IMG/VR virus record: IMGVR_UViG_3300044695_001986
Span: 1-34,658 of that record
Length of the DNA: 34,658 nt
Source: a virus
Reading direction: 5' to 3' (one strand)
Shown here: piece after piece, positions 1 through 33,837 of the stretch
How the letters are laid out: each line of letters begins with the position of its first letter
Numbering within the stretch: position 1 is the stretch's first letter
Made by a program: the position numbers and the translations under genes
Notes under the pieces: model-generated
What the model saw: only the letters and a program-made list of their open reading frames with translations
Database searches by the model: none
Told to the model about the DNA's origin: nothing

Positions 1-984
1 TGACTTATTAAAAACAGTTGCCTCAGTTGTCAAGTTTTCTGAGCCAAAAACATACCTTATTGCCATTTCCTCTGCGATGAACTTATAATATATGGCAATC
101 TTTAACCCATTAAACTTTTCTTTAATGTATTCAACCTTGCTATAATCCACAACCTTCGCCATCCTTTCTGGCTCATCTACTATTACAGTGCCAGAATACA
201 CTTGATGCAATTTTTGCAATAACTTGACTGCCGTATCACCAAGCACAACTTGCCCTTCTTTGTTCCTTACTACTTTATCTATTCGTAGCCTATTTGCCAA
301 AGTATAGGTTGACTGAAGCATCTCAACGTGGTGGATATGCTCATTTACAAGTGACTCGAATCCTGCTTGCTCTTGAGTGAACGTTAGGAACAGATGCCCA
401 CAGCCTTCCATTACAGCTTTCTTGTCAGCCAGGTCATAATTGTTAAAGGACTGCCCATTTATCTTCATCTTCTTTACAGTCACAAATTGTTGCGCCCATT
501 TGTAGAAGTTAGGATAAGCCTCAAATGGAGAGTAACTGCTAACCCAGAACTGATGGTAAAGCTGAGAGAATGACTCAGGGTTGGGTGTACCACTAAGGTA
601 GATGATAGGCTTTCTAAAGCAAATGCGTTTCAACTCCTTTGCCCTTGCTGATGGTACAGGATAGGCTGCTAAGCTGTGTGCTTCGTCAATTATGATAATA
701 TCAAATGACTCCTTTACATTGCCAAGCTGCTCAAAGTTCGTAACATATATACCCATCTCAATGTTACTACCATTAAACTGGTTGACAATATCTCCGATGG
801 CTTTTTTCTTGGTTACGAACAACACAGACTTAGCACCAAACTTATGTGCCGTTGCAAAAGATGTAAGAGTCTTGCCTGTGCGAACTTGTAATGCCAAATA
901 AGCAATCTTATACTTCTTCAGCAGTTCAACTGCCTTATTACTTATCTCCTCCTGATAATCCCGTAATTCCAAGGTGCTTTTCAT
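1..984 (-). CDS. SNF2/DEAD-type helicase, N-terminal part (runs off the window)
   Basis: This is the first 328 residues of a superfamily 2 helicase. The frame is open to the left edge. Visible motifs are an ELRDYQ Q-motif-like start (residues 6-11), Walker A VRTGKT (34-39), the DEAH box in IIIIDEAH (96-103) and motif III SGTP (131-134). The ATG at 984 lies inside the preceding 73-residue gene, an overlap of 47 bases. Motifs V and VI are absent here but occur in frame at the other end of the window (34421-34658), so that piece is very probably the C-terminus of the same gene. Helicases of this kind in phages usually sit with VRR-NUC nucleases and primases, as here, and are thought to act in replication or recombination. 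The family is confident; the exact role is inferred. Confidence 0.88.
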   Translation of the reverse strand, partial: MKSTLELRDYQEEISNKAVELLKKYKIAYLALQVRTGKTLTSFATAHKFGAKSVLFVTKKKAIGDIVNQFNGSNIEMGIYVTNFEQLGNVKESFDIIIIDEAHSLAAYPVPSARAKELKRICFRKPIIYLSGTPNPESFSQLYHQFWVSSYSPFEAYPNFYKWAQQFVTVKKMKINGQSFNNYDLADKKAVMEGCGHLFLTFTQEQAGFESLVNEHIHHVEMLQSTYTLANRLRIDKVVRNKEGQVVLGDTAVKLLQKLHQVYSGTVIVDEPERMAKVVDYSKVEYIKEKFNGLKIAIYYKFIAEEMAIRYVFGSENLTTEATVFNKS

Positions 985-1159
985 TGTAGTAGTTTTGTGC
1001 GACTGATAGTTTCCATGTGCCTGTGTGACCATCTTCATCGAGTCCGTAGATGACTGCTGCTTGTATCTGTTCACGTTCCATGTTCAAATACTTCGCAAAG
1101 TCAACTCTAGTACCATTTTTTACGATGTCATCCATCAATTGTGAGATAGCTGTGTTCAT
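938..1159 (-). CDS. small hypothetical protein (73 aa)
   Basis: I do not recognise this protein. It has no signal peptide or membrane segment. The N-terminus looks helical (MNTAISQLMDDIVKNG). The middle (REQIQAAVIYGLDEDG) and the tail, rich in Gly and Asn (NEKHLGITGLSGGDK), suggest a small soluble fold. Its ATG overlaps the stop of the 84-residue gene upstream by four bases, and its end overlaps the helicase start by 47 bases, so it is embedded in the leftward DNA-metabolism operon and probably translationally coupled to both. The tight packing supports it being a real gene. Confidence 0.7.
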   Translation of the reverse strand: MNTAISQLMDDIVKNGTRVDFAKYLNMEREQIQAAVIYGLDEDGHTGTWKLSVAQNYYNEKHLGITGLSGGDK

Positions 1160-27793: not shown

Positions 27794-27871
27794 ATGAAAC
27801 AAGTAACAGTTATCTCAATCGTTTTCGCAGCTATCGTTTTGGTTAACCTTTCTGCATGGAACTTAATTTAA
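27794..27871 (+). CDS. 25-residue hydrophobic peptide
   Basis: This frame encodes MKQVTVISIVFAAIVLVNLS plus five residues, a single membrane helix after a short basic start. It lies 35 bases after the promoter box and is preceded by an A-rich leader. It is too short to assign. It could be a membrane micro-protein or a leader peptide for the downstream genes. Confidence 0.45.
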   Translation: MKQVTVISIVFAAIVLVNLSAWNLI

Positions 27872-27897
27872 TTAATAACAATTTAAAACCAAACAAA

Positions 27898-28248
27898 ATG
27901 ACAACAGAAATGACAGTACAGGAAATCATTGACGCAATTAATGCAATGGATCAAAATGATTTAGTTTATTTAAACAATGCATATTGCCAGGCTATAAATG
28001 CGTCAGATAGTGAAATTTTTACCAATGATGAAGATTTTTTTGAAGTATTTTTTAGTGGTTCACCAATGAGGTTGGCTCAGGCTATTTGTTACGGAGATTA
28101 CCATTATTATCATGAATACGTACGCTTTAACGGTTATGGTAATTTAGAAACATTTCAGAATATGACAGTAAATGAACTTTGCGAAAATGTTAATACCATT
28201 TCTCAATATGTAGCCGAAAATATTAATGAATTTTATCCATTATTTTAA
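27898..28248 (+). CDS. hypothetical protein (116 aa), rightward block
   Basis: An acidic soluble protein: MTTEMTVQEIIDAINAMDQN, then DLVYLNNAYCQAINASDSEI, then a Tyr/His-rich CYGDYHYYHEYVRF and YVAENINEFYPLF. The ATG at 27898 has an A-rich leader and is preferred to the in-frame ATG at 27856, which overlaps the peptide gene. Similar small phage proteins of the type 'DLVxLxNxYC' exist, but I cannot name a function. Confidence 0.72.
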   Translation: MTTEMTVQEIIDAINAMDQNDLVYLNNAYCQAINASDSEIFTNDEDFFEVFFSGSPMRLAQAICYGDYHYYHEYVRFNGYGNLETFQNMTVNELCENVNTISQYVAENINEFYPLF

Positions 28249-28250
28249 TT

Positions 28251-28343
28251 ATGAAAATTAACCCACAACTTTTGCGCCTAATTATCGCGTTAATTATCGC
28301 CGGCCTAATTATTGGGCAACTCCAGGATACTTACTCACTTTAA
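28251..28343 (+). CDS. 30-residue membrane peptide
   Basis: The frame reads MKINPQLLRLIIALIIAGLI and ends GQLQDTYSL: one membrane helix with a short polar tail. It starts two bases after the stop of the 116-residue gene, so it is likely part of the same transcript. Confidence 0.45.
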   Translation: MKINPQLLRLIIALIIAGLIIGQLQDTYSL

Positions 28344-28363
28344 AAACTATAAAATAAACAATC

Positions 28364-28912
28364 ATGAAAACAGTATTTTCCAGCAATTTAGAACTATCAA
28401 AAGTATGGGCCAATCAAACACAACAAATAGGCAGGGCCTCTAATATGTTTTTTGATGGTGAAATAATTTATTCATACGGTCATCATTATCAAATTGCACA
28501 TTTTATTGATGCTCCAAACGGTCAAAAAGTTTGTTTTATCAATTCAAACGGTTTTAGTAATTCAACCGCAAAACATACAAACCACGTTTGGAGATCAATA
28601 CCAAAAGATATTTTGACCTTTTATGTTCCTTTTATTGTTGATGGTGGTTATTGGTACAAAGAACAATATATAAAAATTGAACATTTACCTACCATTATAA
28701 ATAAAATGATGGTAAATATTGACAAATTAATAGCAAAACAATTAACGGCTAAAACTAATTTTCATTATTGGGGTCAGGCATACAATCAATACGCAAAGGT
28801 TTTGCATATTTGCGAACTTTTTAACATATCAAACCCATCAATACCCCAAAAATGGTTTGAAGCAGAAAAAAAGAGTAATTTATTATCTTATAAAATGGCA
28901 TCGGTTAACTGA
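28364..28912 (+). CDS. widespread phage protein of unknown function (182 aa)
   Basis: The N-terminal half has SKVWANQTQQIGRASNMFF, then GEIIYSYGHHYQIAHFI and NSNGFSNSTAKHTNHVWRSI. I recognise this pattern (WANQ-GRASN-FF-G-IYSYG-H--IA and S-TTAKH-like) from many phages of unrelated hosts, possibly DUF8033, but the name is from memory and uncertain. The C-terminal half is helical. No catalytic motif can be assigned. It is the largest rightward gene and is followed by a terminator. Confidence 0.78.
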   Translation: MKTVFSSNLELSKVWANQTQQIGRASNMFFDGEIIYSYGHHYQIAHFIDAPNGQKVCFINSNGFSNSTAKHTNHVWRSIPKDILTFYVPFIVDGGYWYKEQYIKIEHLPTIINKMMVNIDKLIAKQLTAKTNFHYWGQAYNQYAKVLHICELFNISNPSIPQKWFEAEKKSNLLSYKMASVN

Positions 28913-28983: not shown

Positions 28984-29133
28984 ATGGAAAATTACGAAAA
29001 CCTTTATAATTGGATTAACGCCAATTATTCAGCCCTACAAATATCCTATATTAATTACCACAACAAAGAGAATATAAATTTTACTCTGTATTGTATTGCT
29101 ATGTTTGTTAAGCATCAAAGCCTCTTTTCATAA
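28984..29133 (+). CDS. 49-residue hypothetical protein
   Basis: The frame reads MENYENLYNWINANYSALQI, then SYINYHNKENINFTLYCIAM and ends HQSLFS. It is Asn/Tyr-rich. It begins 22 bases after the terminator and overlaps the end of the DnaA-like gene on the other strand by 26 bases. It may be a real small gene fed by readthrough; confidence is low to moderate. Confidence 0.4.
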   Translation: MENYENLYNWINANYSALQISYINYHNKENINFTLYCIAMFVKHQSLFS

Positions 29134-29518
29134 CATCAACTGTACAGCCTAAACCTTTTATTTTATCTATTATTTGGTCGCTTTCCAATTCAGCTGGAAT
29201 TGCAACCATTACCATTGTAGGTATTAAATACTTTTCTTTTATGCATGAATTTACCTGATCAATAAAATTGCAGGTTAGTTCATCATTAATACTAATCATG
29301 TCCTTAACCTTATTAATTCCATGAATTACGGTAGTATGGTCGCTCCCAAAAAATTGCCCAATTTCAGTCAATTTAAGCCCCATATTTTGCCTAGCGATAT
29401 AATAGTAAGCATGACGGCAAAGAACTAAGCCACGCGCCCGATTTTGCCCTATAATTTGATCCTCAGGTACACCACTAACAAAACTTACAACAGACAACAA
29501 ATTTTCCTTAGTTAACAT
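29108..29518 (-). CDS. DnaA domain IV-like DNA-binding protein (136 aa)
   Basis: Residues 5-75 match the C-terminal duplex-DNA-binding domain of DnaA: VSGVPEDQIIGQNRARGLVL, with the R-H pair (Arg35-His36), then SL-EIG-like KLTEIGQFFG and the signature GSDHTTVIHGINKV (58-71). There is no AAA+ ATPase domain, so it is a stand-alone binder with a different C-terminal region (PTMVMVAIPAELESDQIIDK). It lies directly beside the candidate origin and probably recognises repeats there, or recruits or blocks host DnaA. The role is inferred. Confidence 0.82.
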   Translation of the reverse strand: MLTKENLLSVVSFVSGVPEDQIIGQNRARGLVLCRHAYYYIARQNMGLKLTEIGQFFGSDHTTVIHGINKVKDMISINDELTCNFIDQVNSCIKEKYLIPTMVMVAIPAELESDQIIDKIKGLGCTVDVMKRGFDA

Positions 29519-29642
29519 ATTTATTTTTTAAAATGTATAATATAGTAGCTTGTATTGCACAGTACCCTTTCTTTTATCTTTTGATGACCTTTCTTTATCA
29601 AAGAAAATATATCTTATTAAGTAACCATGTATATACCAAAAA

Positions 29643-29729
29643 CCCCAAAAACTCCCAACCTCATGGTTGACAAAAACCCCACAAAAACCTCCACCAAAAA
29701 CTCCCCAAAAATCCCCACCAAAAATCCCC
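29643..29729 (-). repeat. G-rich strand block, possible G-quadruplex
   Basis: The minus strand carries five GGGG tracts and at least one GGG, mostly separated by TTTTT or near variants. The unit is like GGGGATTTTT. At least four tracts lie close together (29703-29729 and 29677-29680), so an intramolecular G-quadruplex is possible. Confidence 0.6.
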
Positions 29730-29769
29730 AACAAAAACTTCTGTGAACGCAGTGAACAGAACAACCGGT

Positions 29770-29961
29770 TACGCGATTACGCGATATTTTCATCATTCCT
29801 TTCTTTTCTATATATATAGAAATCCAAAAAAAAAACAAACATACCCTAAAAAATAGAAAAAATCGTGTAAATCGCGTATCCGCATTGATTCTCAACCACT
29901 TAGCTACCCAAAATCGTGTAAAAATCGCGTACCAATGACGTTCCCGACCAAAAATCGCGTA
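29770..29961. repeat. iteron set ATCG(C/T)GTA
   Basis: Forward copies start at 29862 (ATCGTGTA), 29871, 29913 (ATCGTGTA), 29924 and 29954. Reverse copies TACGCGAT occupy 29770-29777 and 29778-29785. A further reverse copy lies inside the primase gene at 30065-30072. CGCG-containing octamers are otherwise rare in this AT-rich sequence. Several extend to ATCGCGTAYC. Confidence 0.65.
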
Positions 29962-29979
29962 CCCAATTTATATGTCATA

Positions 29980-32478
29980 TTAAAATAAATCATCATGTGT
30001 TACTTTTTCTTTATTAAAGTTATACATCTTTTTTCCTCCAGCACTTTTTTCCCTCTTATTTAGGTACGCGATATTTAAAATGGAACACGATTCTTCAATT
30101 CCTTTGGTGAACCTTTTTACGCTATAATCCTTCTTATCAAAACCACTCATTGTCATAAAATCGTTATATAATTGCTCTAGCTTTATCCACCCTACTTCCT
30201 CATCCAAAATCCCCAAAAAGTACTCCAAAAACTCCTCTCCGAACTGGACTCTGATCTGCTTCCTTTTTATTTTCTCAGATGATTTCACCTCCAACACTCC
30301 AAACTCAAGGTAGCCTTGAACGCAATCAAACATCAAATTATAAAACCTGTTCCACTCATCTTTATCCCAATCATCAAACAATTTATGTCCAAACTCATCC
30401 TCTGGTGTCCTACCTGGGCCAAAGTATCCACTAAATTCCAATACTTTCTGCCTCCTTTTAGCGTGGTTACCCGAATTAGGTATGGTGTAATTAGTCGTAA
30501 ACATCACCTTTGGTGAGTCACTATATGGTATAAACAACTCATCCTTGTTCTTCTTCTCTACTGTGATTCCTTCAGTAATAATCGAGTAAAAACCCTCAAA
30601 ATCTACGTTCCTCCGCGTATCCTCAATTGCCAGTATCCTTGTATCCAGGTCAACCCTTTGAAAGGCGAATGACTTATCAAATTTAAAGTTCTTACCATCC
30701 ACTCTGACAATATTTAAAAGGTAACCCAATGCCTTTACAAATATCCCTTTACCAGTTCCCCCTCCATTGGCTTCCTTTTCTGTTTCCTCCGCAAGAATTA
30801 CTGAGAACGGCCTTGATGGGTCTTTATAATTGTGCAAAAGGTATCCTATCAATCCAAGCGCATAGATATACCTATCCTTATCTGAGTCAGAAATCTTTTC
30901 TATAAATCGGAAGTATTCTATCTTTTCCAGTTCAATTTCAGAGTCCAAAACAATAAAATGGTCAATAACTTGCGACTTCCACACCACTTTGCCGAGTTCC
31001 CCGTAACTTTTTAACATAATTGAGTCCTTTCCAACCACGACAACTCCATTCTTAAATGGGAAAAAACCCTCATTCTTGGTATCCTTCAAAAAACTCAACT
31101 CTGCCCGCTCAAAAAACTCAAAAAAAGCATCCGAAAATAAAACAGTAGCCCCTTTATAAATCAACTCAAGCAGGTCTTGAGGTGTGACCCCACCATCAAA
31201 CGAGTCAGGTAATTTATCAACATAATCCTTGATAAACCTCTTAATCTGCTCAGTTGATGCCTCCTCCACAAATCCATCTTTCACCCGAACGAGTCTGTAA
31301 ATGGTTGACCCTTGGTCATAGAAATATAGCCTAAACCCTCCAACTGTGGTGAGAAATACTTGCAACTTGTACCTGTTCACGCTCGCCTTTCCCTTATCAT
31401 CAACATCCCAGAACGTGCAAATCTCATCCCCCCACCTAGCATCCAGTTCATCAACCATCACCTTGGCATCATCCAGCGACTTGTTGTGCTTCTTGACTAA
31501 AATAGTCACCAAATCATCCTTCGAAGCACCATCATTTTTCTTGGAAAACAACTCTCTCTCAACCCTATCACCGAAGGATGTTTTTTTTTCTCCGTATCCT
31601 TTGTCAAGCAACTTACGCGCTGCCAACTTAAAATCACCATCGCACTCCATGACGGCGAAAACCGCCGCCAATTTGTATCCCTTTTGAACTAAAAATGCGG
31701 TATTCACCGAAAAAACGCTAAAAAGCCCTAAACTTTTGTTCCACGACCCACTATGTTCAGCGTTTGAGCCAGGTCGCAAAAAATAAATCCGTTCGCTGTT
31801 CTCTTTTCGAACAATCCACCCATTGCGAGTCATCAGTTCAACTATATCCCCTCTACGATTGTAGTCATCAAATGGTGATACCCCATAATCTTTGGTTGAC
31901 GGCCTTTGATGGGCTTCGATGATCGCCTCCTCAAATATCTCATTGAACGACCGCATAATTTCGAATAATATCTCTCGTTCATCCAATGAGATGATGTTGA
32001 TGCCTTCCTGTTCGACTTGGTAGCCTTCCGTAGGCGGAGCAACAACATATCCACCTTCTCCCCTTGTCTCAATAATGCAATAAGATTTGATCGAAGGATT
32101 ATTTTTCGATTCTTCCAATGTCGGTAGTCGCTGTGCGAGTTTCTGATTCTTTTCAATCGCCTCGCATTTATAGATGAGGTGTTTGCCATTGCTTCTTGTT
32201 TTTACGATGTGCAATTTCTTGTACAAGTCAGATGGAATAGCGGACTGAATAGCCTCCCACAGGTCATATGTCTCATACTTTGTATCTATATCAATCACCT
32301 CAAGATTGCCACTCACTGCCCCACAAATAATAGCCACACCTTTTGCCCTATTATCAGCCATTTGCCGAACCAATTCCTCTTCCTTTATCATTTCCTCTTG
32401 GTAGACCTTCCAAGGGAAAATAGCCTGCTTATTTTCATTTACAGCGATAGTATTGATGCCGAGTTGTAAGTAGTTCAT
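29980..32478 (-). CDS. primase-polymerase / SF3 helicase fusion (832 aa)
   Basis: The N-terminal domain fits an archaeo-eukaryotic-type prim-pol: VIDIDTKYE (Asp63, Asp65), then HIVKTRSNGKHLIYKC, then RGEGGYVVAPPTEGYQ. The C-terminal domain is an SF3/D5-like helicase with Walker A GGGTGKG (572-578), Walker B RILAIEDT (614-621), sensor-like TTNY (661-664) and Arg675-Arg676. The middle part links them. It would make primers and unwind DNA at the origin, which begins right after its stop. Its start is two bases after the stop of the VRR-NUC gene. Confidence 0.85.
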   Translation of the reverse strand: MNYLQLGINTIAVNENKQAIFPWKVYQEEMIKEEELVRQMADNRAKGVAIICGAVSGNLEVIDIDTKYETYDLWEAIQSAIPSDLYKKLHIVKTRSNGKHLIYKCEAIEKNQKLAQRLPTLEESKNNPSIKSYCIIETRGEGGYVVAPPTEGYQVEQEGINIISLDEREILFEIMRSFNEIFEEAIIEAHQRPSTKDYGVSPFDDYNRRGDIVELMTRNGWIVRKENSERIYFLRPGSNAEHSGSWNKSLGLFSVFSVNTAFLVQKGYKLAAVFAVMECDGDFKLAARKLLDKGYGEKKTSFGDRVERELFSKKNDGASKDDLVTILVKKHNKSLDDAKVMVDELDARWGDEICTFWDVDDKGKASVNRYKLQVFLTTVGGFRLYFYDQGSTIYRLVRVKDGFVEEASTEQIKRFIKDYVDKLPDSFDGGVTPQDLLELIYKGATVLFSDAFFEFFERAELSFLKDTKNEGFFPFKNGVVVVGKDSIMLKSYGELGKVVWKSQVIDHFIVLDSEIELEKIEYFRFIEKISDSDKDRYIYALGLIGYLLHNYKDPSRPFSVILAEETEKEANGGGTGKGIFVKALGYLLNIVRVDGKNFKFDKSFAFQRVDLDTRILAIEDTRRNVDFEGFYSIITEGITVEKKNKDELFIPYSDSPKVMFTTNYTIPNSGNHAKRRQKVLEFSGYFGPGRTPEDEFGHKLFDDWDKDEWNRFYNLMFDCVQGYLEFGVLEVKSSEKIKRKQIRVQFGEEFLEYFLGILDEEVGWIKLEQLYNDFMTMSGFDKKDYSVKRFTKGIEESCSILNIAYLNKREKSAGGKKMYNFNKEKVTHDDLF

Positions 32479-32480
32479 AA

Positions 32481-32753
32481 TTATTGTAGTTTATAGCAAA
32501 AAACATCAACATCAGATACATCCCTAACAACGCGAGCAAAGATGCCCATCGCGTTAAGTTTGTCAATCATGTATTGTTGCAGTTCAGACACAACTCCTGT
32601 GTCAGTCTTAACCTCAAGCATAATGACTGTGCCTTTACGAATAGCCATCAAGTCGCAAATTCCAGGTGTTGAGGTGCTTATCAACTTTGTAACAAACCAC
32701 CCATTATCTTTTAATCGTTTAACTATTTTTGTCTGGAGTGTTGATTCTTTCAT
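32481..32753 (-). CDS. VRR-NUC domain nuclease (90 aa)
   Basis: A compact PD-(D/E)XK enzyme of the VRR-NUC type: Asp34 in GICDLMAIRKG, Glu47 and Lys49 in MLEVKTDTG, and Gln-rich SELQQYMIDKL (57-66). The length fits stand-alone phage members. It would act on branched DNA in replication or recombination, together with the SNF2 helicase of the same operon. It overlaps the methyltransferase end by 35 bases. Confidence 0.88.
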   Translation of the reverse strand: MKESTLQTKIVKRLKDNGWFVTKLISTSTPGICDLMAIRKGTVIMLEVKTDTGVVSELQQYMIDKLNAMGIFARVVRDVSDVDVFCYKLQ

Positions 32754-33837
32754 ATTGTGAAATTGTTTTAAAGATTTGTAGAACTACTTGAGGGACTACT
32801 GCATTTCCTCCTGCTTTGATTGACTCGTTTCGCCATTTAGGAAAGGTAATAGAGTCCAATCGGTCGGAAATCCCATCATCTCCAGTACAAATTGGGGAGA
32901 CAGATGGGAACGAGTCCCAAGCATTTCGTTGATGTGACTGCCCAAATCGTCCCCTTTCCAATTCTCCGTTTTCCAATGCATATTCTTGTCTGATGTGCGA
33001 GGTGTTGGTAGGATTCCCTGTTTGTGCAGTAGTGCCATCTTCCCCGAAAGCATATTCGCTGTCCCATCCGACCTCAACTGACCCTTCCAATCTCCTGCTA
33101 TTGGTGTTGGCAACATCCCCATCGCCATTGCTCTCGTAAATGTCACCGAGTGCATTGAACCTTCCTTCACTTGTGTTGACTTCATTGTCGCTGTTGCATT
33201 GGTTGAGTCCATTGCTGTTGGGGTTGGAAGTAGTCCCCTCAATGCCATCTGATCTAAAGGCATCGTAAATGGTTTGTGACCCTTCTCTACCAATCTCTCC
33301 ATCCTTGCATCGTATGCCTGAAAGTTGGTTTGCTCTCTCGCTTGCGCGAGCGGAGTAGGCAACAAACCAGACTCTGTCCCTTCTGTGTGGTGCGTTGACG
33401 GATACAGCTGGAAGTACATACGGTTGTACTTCGTACCCTTCAGCTTCCAGGTCAGCTTGCACTTCGTGGAAAACCAACCCTCCTGACCAATTAACAAGTC
33501 CGAGAACGTTTTCGCCCACAACCCAACGTGGTTGAATCTCCCGAATCGCTCTAAGCATCTCTGGCCAGAGGTGTCTCTCATCTTCTTTACCAAGTCGCTT
33601 TCCTGCTGATGAGTATGGTTGACAAGGGAATCCTCCTGTGAGAATATCAATTCTGTTTGCATATTTTTTAAAGTCTGTTTTAGTTATGTCTGTGAATTGT
33701 TCTGCTTTTGGGAAGTAATGATGGAGGACTTTTTGACCAAATGGATTCCATTCACAATGAAATTTATTTTCCCATCCCATCCATTCAGCAGCCAAGTCAA
33801 ATCCTCCGATACCAGAAAATAGTGATCCGTGGGTCAT
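32719..33837 (-). CDS. DNA cytosine-5 methyltransferase (372 aa)
   Basis: Motifs in order: I FSGIGGFDLA (7-16), IV GGFPCQPYS with catalytic Cys72 (68-76), VI VVGENV (106-111), VIII HRRDRVWFVA (151-160) and X GGNAVVPQ (343-350), preceded by TFPKWRNESI. The target-recognition region (about 165-310) is Asn/Ser/Gly-rich with repeats such as SNPNSNG and ANTNSRR, unusual for a folded domain. The target sequence is unknown; protection of phage DNA from host restriction is the usual role. Its ATG overlaps the preceding stop (ATGA). A second long frame is nested inside the gene. Confidence 0.9.
   Translation of the reverse strand: MTHGSLFSGIGGFDLAAEWMGWENKFHCEWNPFGQKVLHHYFPKAEQFTDITKTDFKKYANRIDILTGGFPCQPYSSAGKRLGKEDERHLWPEMLRAIREIQPRWVVGENVLGLVNWSGGLVFHEVQADLEAEGYEVQPYVLPAVSVNAPHRRDRVWFVAYSARASERANQLSGIRCKDGEIGREGSQTIYDAFRSDGIEGTTSNPNSNGLNQCNSDNEVNTSEGRFNALGDIYESNGDGDVANTNSRRLEGSVEVGWDSEYAFGEDGTTAQTGNPTNTSHIRQEYALENGELERGRFGQSHQRNAWDSFPSVSPICTGDDGISDRLDSITFPKWRNESIKAGGNAVVPQVVLQIFKTISQYERINTPDKNS
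32796..33662 (-). CDS. LPTP-repeat protein encoded in the +1 frame of the methyltransferase
   Basis: This 288-residue frame starts with an ATG at 33662 and lies wholly inside the methyltransferase gene, same strand, +1 frame. It does not look like random translation. It has TSGQRCLERFGRFNHVGLWA (31-50), GWFSTKCKLTWKLKGTKYNR (62-81), MYFQLYPSTHHTEGTESGLL (82-101), then four LPTP units at residues 101, 145, 184 and 218, and SPQFVLEMMGFPTDWT (255-270). From memory, proteins with TWK-KGTK--RMYFQL and LPTP-A-D units ending MGFP--WT are common beside or in place of cytosine methyltransferases. The function is unknown. Translation would need internal initiation. Confidence 0.55.
   Translation of the reverse strand: MQTELIFSQEDSLVNHTHQQESDLVKKMRDTSGQRCLERFGRFNHVGLWAKTFSDLLIGQEGWFSTKCKLTWKLKGTKYNRMYFQLYPSTHHTEGTESGLLPTPLAQAREQTNFQAYDARMERLVEKGHKPFTMPLDQMALRGLLPTPTAMDSTNATATMKSTQVKEGSMHSVTFTRAMAMGMLPTPIAGDWKGQLRSDGTANMLSGKMALLHKQGILPTPRTSDKNMHWKTENWKGDDLGSHINEMLGTRSHLSPQFVLEMMGFPTDWTLLPFLNGETSQSKQEEMQ

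What the first reader, a model, noticed from the sequence alone, without database searches (positions are those of the whole stretch)
29519..29979. Probable origin with iterons, a G-rich strand and a neighbouring stand-alone DnaA DNA-binding domain
Seen: seven ATCG(C/T)GTA octamers in both orientations plus one inside the primase gene, an 18-bp AT palindrome, an A-rich stretch and a G4/T5-like block, all in a 461-base non-coding gap. Known: iterons, AT-rich DNA and initiator genes cluster at origins. Inference: the DnaA domain IV protein binds the iterons and the prim-pol/SF3 helicase loads there. No perfect DnaA box is present in the gap; an 8/9 match (TTATCCACC) is nearby in the primase gene.
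Basis: partly seen in the sequence, partly recalled or inferred. Interest (0 to 1): 0.62.

Follow-up and report, generated by a model that had tools for sequence, protein, structure and literature searches.

The report
Phage origin read by its primase-helicase

Summary
The repeats are real: seven ATCGYGTA octamers lie in the 461-bp gap and one in the primase gene; 0.8 is expected in the whole window. In relatives the same geometry follows the Prim-Pol/SF3 gene: forward iterons 20, 11 and 11 nt apart, TTGATWATCAA, two head-to-tail iterons 9 nt apart, a T-run, then often an inverted pair. So 'origin' is well supported, though unproven. The proposed reader of the iterons is not supported. Ten records with significant repeats hold no DnaA-C gene anywhere. 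Across 42 phages, iteron divergence tracks the primase's C-terminal winged-helix domain (r 0.68; 0.59-0.70 after correcting for the rest of the protein), not DnaA-C (about 0 after correction). Best model: the Prim-Pol/SF3/winged-helix protein binds iterons just downstream of its own gene, as SaPI Rep and SCCmec Cch2 do; DnaA-C is a frequent but dispensable neighbour of unknown role. The G/T block and AT palindrome are not conserved, and GC skew does not change sign. This is a new variant of a known kind, with a repeat-protein pairing ready to test.

The parts
29980..32478 (-). Prim-Pol / SF3 helicase / winged-helix replication protein (832 aa), proposed initiator
   Evidence: Pfam Prim-Pol 7.8e-13 (residues 2-152) and DUF5906 1.1e-7 (573-676); invariant GGGTGKG Walker A and catalytic DxD in 13 diverse relatives
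30013..30246 (-). C-terminal winged-helix domain (residues 745-822), proposed iteron reader; recognition helix residues 787-800 at 30079-30120
   Evidence: AlphaFold2 model pLDDT 83 with helix-helix-helix-strand-wing-strand order (residues mapped); its divergence best explains iteron divergence
29954..29963 (-). iteron 1 GGTACGCGAT
   Evidence: position +16 after the primase stop, as in relatives
   Evidence: the same slot holds a full iteron in relatives L165 and L151
29924..29933 (-). iteron 3 GGTACGCGAT
29913..29922 (-). iteron 4 TTTACACGAT
29885..29895 (-). TTGATWATCAA element (here TTGAGAATCAA) between the two iteron groups
   Evidence: 52 of 111 loci, 1.32/kb after the primase against 0.009/kb elsewhere
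29862..29880 (-). head-to-tail iteron pair GATACGCGAT/TTTACACGAT, 9-nt step, abutting a T-run
   Evidence: a 9-nt pair in 57 of 79 loci, all followed by a T-rich stretch
29800..29861 (.). 82% AT stretch with T-runs and the 18-bp AT palindrome 29805-29822; candidate unwinding element
   Evidence: palindrome itself conserved only in close relatives
29768..29785 (+). inverted iteron pair GTTACGCGAT/ATTACGCGAT, 8-nt step
   Evidence: present in many but not all relatives
29636..29740 (-). GTTTTTGG array (G/T-rich on the coding strand); accessory, not core
   Evidence: at least 3 copies in only 22 of 65 relatives with a downstream DnaA-C gene
30063..30072 (+). extra iteron GGTACGCGAT inside the primase gene
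29108..29518 (-). stand-alone DnaA domain IV protein (136 aa) with an extra C-terminal tail; frequent but dispensable neighbour
   Evidence: Pfam Bac_DnaA_C 2.1e-16; model pLDDT 90, TM 0.93 to the M. tuberculosis DnaA DNA-binding domain 3pvp; absent from several whole relative records

Best explanation
29768-29963 is the core of the phage's replication origin. The Prim-Pol/SF3 protein encoded just upstream binds the 10-bp iterons (KGTANNYSAT) through its C-terminal winged-helix domain, assembles as an SF3 helicase around the two head-to-tail iterons, opens the adjacent T-rich stretch and primes DNA synthesis with its own Prim-Pol domain. TTGATWATCAA between the iteron groups is a conserved second site, reader unknown. 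The stand-alone DnaA domain IV protein is an optional accessory. Shown here: the repeats, their conserved geometry, their persistence without DnaA-C, and their co-divergence with the winged helix. Inferred: binding, unwinding, priming, and that the locus fires as an origin.
For: The repeats exceed chance. The same layout directly follows the primase gene in relatives at 100% to about 44% identity, and in the L088/L175 group the whole module is inverted as a unit. Ten records with significant repeats (0 of 200 shuffles) hold no PF08299 match anywhere. Mantel tests on 42 non-redundant loci: iteron against winged helix r 0.68, partial 0.70 and 0.59; iteron against DnaA-C r 0.38, partial 0.13 and -0.04. 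Sliding windows along the 832-residue protein peak at residues 721-820, and in close relatives reach r 0.89 (partial 0.74), while DnaA-C is about 0. Recognition-helix class Y[ST]R[IR]R goes with iterons ending in CACTT-type sequence, YS[VLMIQ][KR]R with those ending in SAT. [quoted passage not shown]
Against: No binding, coverage or replication data. GC skew does not flip. The winged helix is encoded next to the iterons, so linked recombination could inflate the correlation; without the R-class the partial r falls to 0.28-0.38, and part of the 361-460 region reaches a similar value. The recognition-helix class change may be one event. The Foldseek hits of the winged-helix model are mostly winged-helix proteins but not significant (best E 0.089). 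The records are IMG/VR fragments of unknown completeness, so absence of DnaA-C is not proven. Twenty-five of 70 DnaA-C loci did not pass the exact-7-mer repeat test, mostly those with degenerate or mixed iterons.
Confidence: 0.7

Rival explanations
1. The DnaA domain IV protein binds the iterons and loads the primase-helicase there.
For: The gene lies directly downstream of the iterons in most relatives; the fold is a true DnaA domain IV with the minor-groove Arg (R27) and the His (H61) invariant in 38 proteins.
Against: Iterons persist without the gene; near-identical iterons occur with 27%-identical DnaA-C proteins; no co-divergence after correction.
Confidence: 0.1
2. Both bind the region: the winged helix reads the iterons, and DnaA-C (or host DnaA) reads TTGATWATCAA or DnaA boxes near its own gene as a helper or autoregulator. 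This extends the best explanation rather than excluding it.
For: DnaA-box contact residues are kept; TTATCMACA lies in the gap of 12 relatives, TTATCAACA at about eight times and TTATCCACA at about four times the rate elsewhere; TTGATWATCAA is strongly localised.
Against: TTGATWATCAA also occurs in loci without DnaA-C; no DnaA box in the window's own gap.
Confidence: 0.35
3. The repeats are an operator or partition site controlling the downstream gene rather than an origin.
For: They lie upstream of the DnaA-C start codon; repeat operators and centromeres exist (general knowledge).
Against: They stay with the primase when the downstream gene is replaced, and the module is found inverted in the prophage group.
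Confidence: 0.08

Closest known systems
SaPI Rep origins and SCCmec Cch2 (staphylococcal islands)
   Same: Helicase-type initiator whose C-terminal domain recognises iterons directly downstream of its own gene (PMC7581432).
   Different: Different primase arrangement, host phylum and iterons; here a fixed 20-11-11 / 9 geometry, TTGATWATCAA and often a DnaA-C gene. Homology to Rep or Cch2 was not shown.
pRN1 ORF904 and its downstream origin
   Same: Prim-Pol, SF3 helicase and C-terminal winged helix in one protein; essential non-coding region directly downstream of the gene (PMC4234260).
   Different: pRN1 uses a 100-bp stem-loop and is stated to lack iterons; here iterons are the conserved feature, although inverted pairs could form a stem.
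NrS-1 phage primase-polymerase
   Same: Phage Prim-Pol plus helicase; recognises TTTGGTTA and GTG-type template sites (PMC8718748), loosely like the TTTTTGGTGG array.
   Different: No sequence match to it in the PDB searches; no iterons mentioned in the passages read; the G/T array here is not conserved.
Bacterial DnaA domain IV / oriC
   Same: The neighbour is a genuine DnaA domain IV fold.
   Different: No AAA+ domain, no DnaA boxes in the gap, and the repeats do not follow it.

Membership tests
SaPI Rep / Cch2-type downstream iteron origin | repeats directly 3' of the initiator helicase gene | tested here: met
   Iterons begin 16 nt after the primase stop and stay there in relatives
SaPI Rep / Cch2-type downstream iteron origin | repeats read by the C-terminal domain of the helicase protein | tested here: inconclusive
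   Co-divergence supports it; no binding assay possible
SaPI Rep / Cch2-type downstream iteron origin | sequence homology to SaPI Rep or Cch2 | not tested
   Only a sub-threshold TIGR01613 primase_Cterm match, E 0.029
pRN1-type replicon | Prim-Pol + SF3 helicase + C-terminal winged helix in one protein | tested here: met
   Pfam domains, Walker motif, winged-helix model (fold hits not significant)
pRN1-type replicon | conserved ~100-nt stem-loop as origin | tested here: inconclusive
   Stem from inverted iterons, z -2.45 and -4.04 in two members; the inverted pair is missing in several groups
DnaA-dependent oriC | full-length DnaA with AAA+ domain | tested here: not met
   136-aa protein with domain IV only
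DnaA-dependent oriC | DnaA boxes in the origin | tested here: not met
   No TTATCCACA with up to one mismatch in the gap
Iteron origin | several direct repeats beside an AT-rich region and an initiator gene | tested here: met
Iteron origin | initiator binding and autonomous replication | not testable with these tools
   Needs bench work

The most novel reading that the evidence does not exclude
A two-reader phage origin: the primase-helicase's winged helix reads the iterons, while a stand-alone DnaA domain IV protein, lacking the AAA+ motor, acts as an auxiliary initiator or as a decoy that occupies host DnaA boxes and shuts off host replication.
Probability: 0.3. Interest if true: 0.7.

Novelty: new variant of a known kind. 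Interest (0 to 1): 0.5.

Why it matters
About 30 distinct iteron consensuses are paired with sequenced winged-helix domains, so the DNA-recognition code of a self-loading primase-helicase can be read from nature and tested by domain swaps. It also gives an iteron origin for the Prim-Pol/SF3/winged-helix architecture, for which a stem-loop origin had been proposed, and shows that a DnaA-like neighbour need not be the origin binder. The prophage in cultured Niabella aurantiaca DSM 17617 makes this testable.

Tried and rejected
Megablast against the phage records gave no match; protein searches there gave only distant relatives. An exact-7-mer repeat statistic was too strict for mixed iterons, and a first automatic motif caller was misled by T-runs and the G/T array; it was replaced by a tandem-pair search. 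The G/T array as a Prim-Pol priming signal, by analogy with NrS-1, was considered and left aside because 43 of 65 relatives lack it. Sequence searches of the primase against the PDB gave nothing useful. GC skew was checked and is uninformative. Literature searches found no description of stand-alone DnaA-C phage proteins of this kind; most subscription papers are not held.

Full report
Observation. The window is a 34,658-base virus record. ATCGYGTA occurs eight times, all within 29770-30072, against 0.8 expected. On the coding (minus) strand the gap runs from the stop of an 832-aa Prim-Pol/DUF5906 protein to the start of a 136-aa protein matching only Bac_DnaA_C. The repeat unit is 10 bp: GGTACGCGAT, GGAACGTCAT, GGTACGCGAT and TTTACACGAT, then TTGAGAATCAA, then GATACGCGAT/TTTACACGAT, then T-runs, then an inverted pair.

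Relatives. Scans of IMG/VR with both proteins and with a primase alignment gave over a hundred loci, and a scan of bacterial genomes gave prophages in Niabella and Chitinophaga plus other Bacteroidota contigs, so the host is probably a member of the Bacteroidota (inference). In 49 distinct loci the order primase, gap, DnaA-C is kept although DnaA-C identity falls to 26%. The gaps carry repeats whose sequence differs by lineage (GGTACGCGAT, GGTACACGAT, TTAACATCAT, TGTAGTCCAT, TGTAATCGAT, TGTACCACTT, TGTTCCACTT, TGTAACCGAT) while the layout stays: steps of 20, 11 and 11 nt, an interval of 31 or 42 nt holding TTGATWATCAA, a step of 9, a T-run, and in many an inverted pair 80-90 nt further on. Of 79 loci with confident iterons 57 have the 9-nt pair, all followed by a T-rich stretch. 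TTGATWATCA(A) occurs at 1.32/kb after the primase and 0.009/kb elsewhere.

Which protein reads the repeats? First, natural absences: whole-record searches with PF08299 find no DnaA-C in the records of L087/L114, L088, L117, L119, L120, L124, L135, L164, L166 and L169, yet their repeats are significant (0 of 200 shuffles). These are related in part (about five groups) and the records may be incomplete. Second, co-divergence: over 42 non-redundant loci with both proteins, iteron distance correlates with the primase C-terminal domain (r 0.68; partial 0.70 given the Prim-Pol domain, 0.59 given the helicase) but with DnaA-C only through shared ancestry (r 0.38; partial 0.13 and -0.04). A sliding window along the primase peaks at residues 721-820 in the full set, and among close relatives gives r 0.89 and partial 0.74 at 761-820, with DnaA-C near zero. 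Without the R-class loci the peak is weaker (partial 0.28-0.38) and not unique. Third, structure: this region is predicted as a winged helix whose recognition helix starts with a variable residue (V, M, Q, L, I or R at 787) and an almost invariant Arg 789. The R class goes with iterons ending in CACTT-type sequence, the others with SAT. Fold matches in the PDB are mostly winged-helix proteins but not significant. Genetic linkage between the winged-helix codons and the iterons is an uncorrected confound.

DnaA-C. The 136-aa protein is a genuine DnaA domain IV fold (TM 0.93 to 3pvp), and the residues corresponding to the minor-groove Arg and the recognition His are invariant in 38 relatives (correspondence from the alignment and general knowledge of DnaA). 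It probably still binds DNA. Its target is not established; TTATCMACA boxes in the gap of some groups suggest autoregulation or competition with host DnaA, but this is inference.

Known systems. [quoted passage not shown] pRN1 ORF904 shares the Prim-Pol/SF3/winged-helix architecture and a downstream origin, but there a stem-loop, not iterons, is essential, and the authors suggested stem-loops for this protein type in general (PMC4234260). The present locus works like the first and has the architecture of the second. Formal membership in either is not claimed.

Verdict. Direct proof needs gel shifts, a plasmid replication test and coverage mapping.

Noticed in passing
L175 (Niabella aurantiaca DSM 17617), directly after the primase gene, from about 10,536: Prophage in a cultured strain with TGTAACCGAT-type iterons, TTGATTATCAA and a DnaA-C gene directly after the primase gene; a practical bench model.
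   Followed up: partly
L088, L089, L174, L175: The iteron module is inverted relative to the primase gene, as if it were a movable unit.
   Followed up: partly
gaps of L129, L139, L141, L151 and others: A TTATCMACA DnaA box in the gap, often shortly before the DnaA-C start; enriched over background; absent from the window's gap.
   Followed up: partly
window 29636-29740: GTTTTTGG array, G-rich on the coding strand, in a third of relatives; role unexplained.
   Followed up: partly
window 32481-33837: Hjc/VRR-like nuclease and a C5 cytosine methyltransferase directly upstream of the primase; the iterons contain CG sites, so methylation could matter.
   Followed up: no
window 1-1074: Open-ended ORF matching phage DNA helicase families (phrog_62, 1.6e-28), so a second helicase is encoded.
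   Followed up: no
window 27856-28912: Two plus-strand genes of unknown function in an AT-rich stretch, opposite to nearly all other genes.
   Followed up: no
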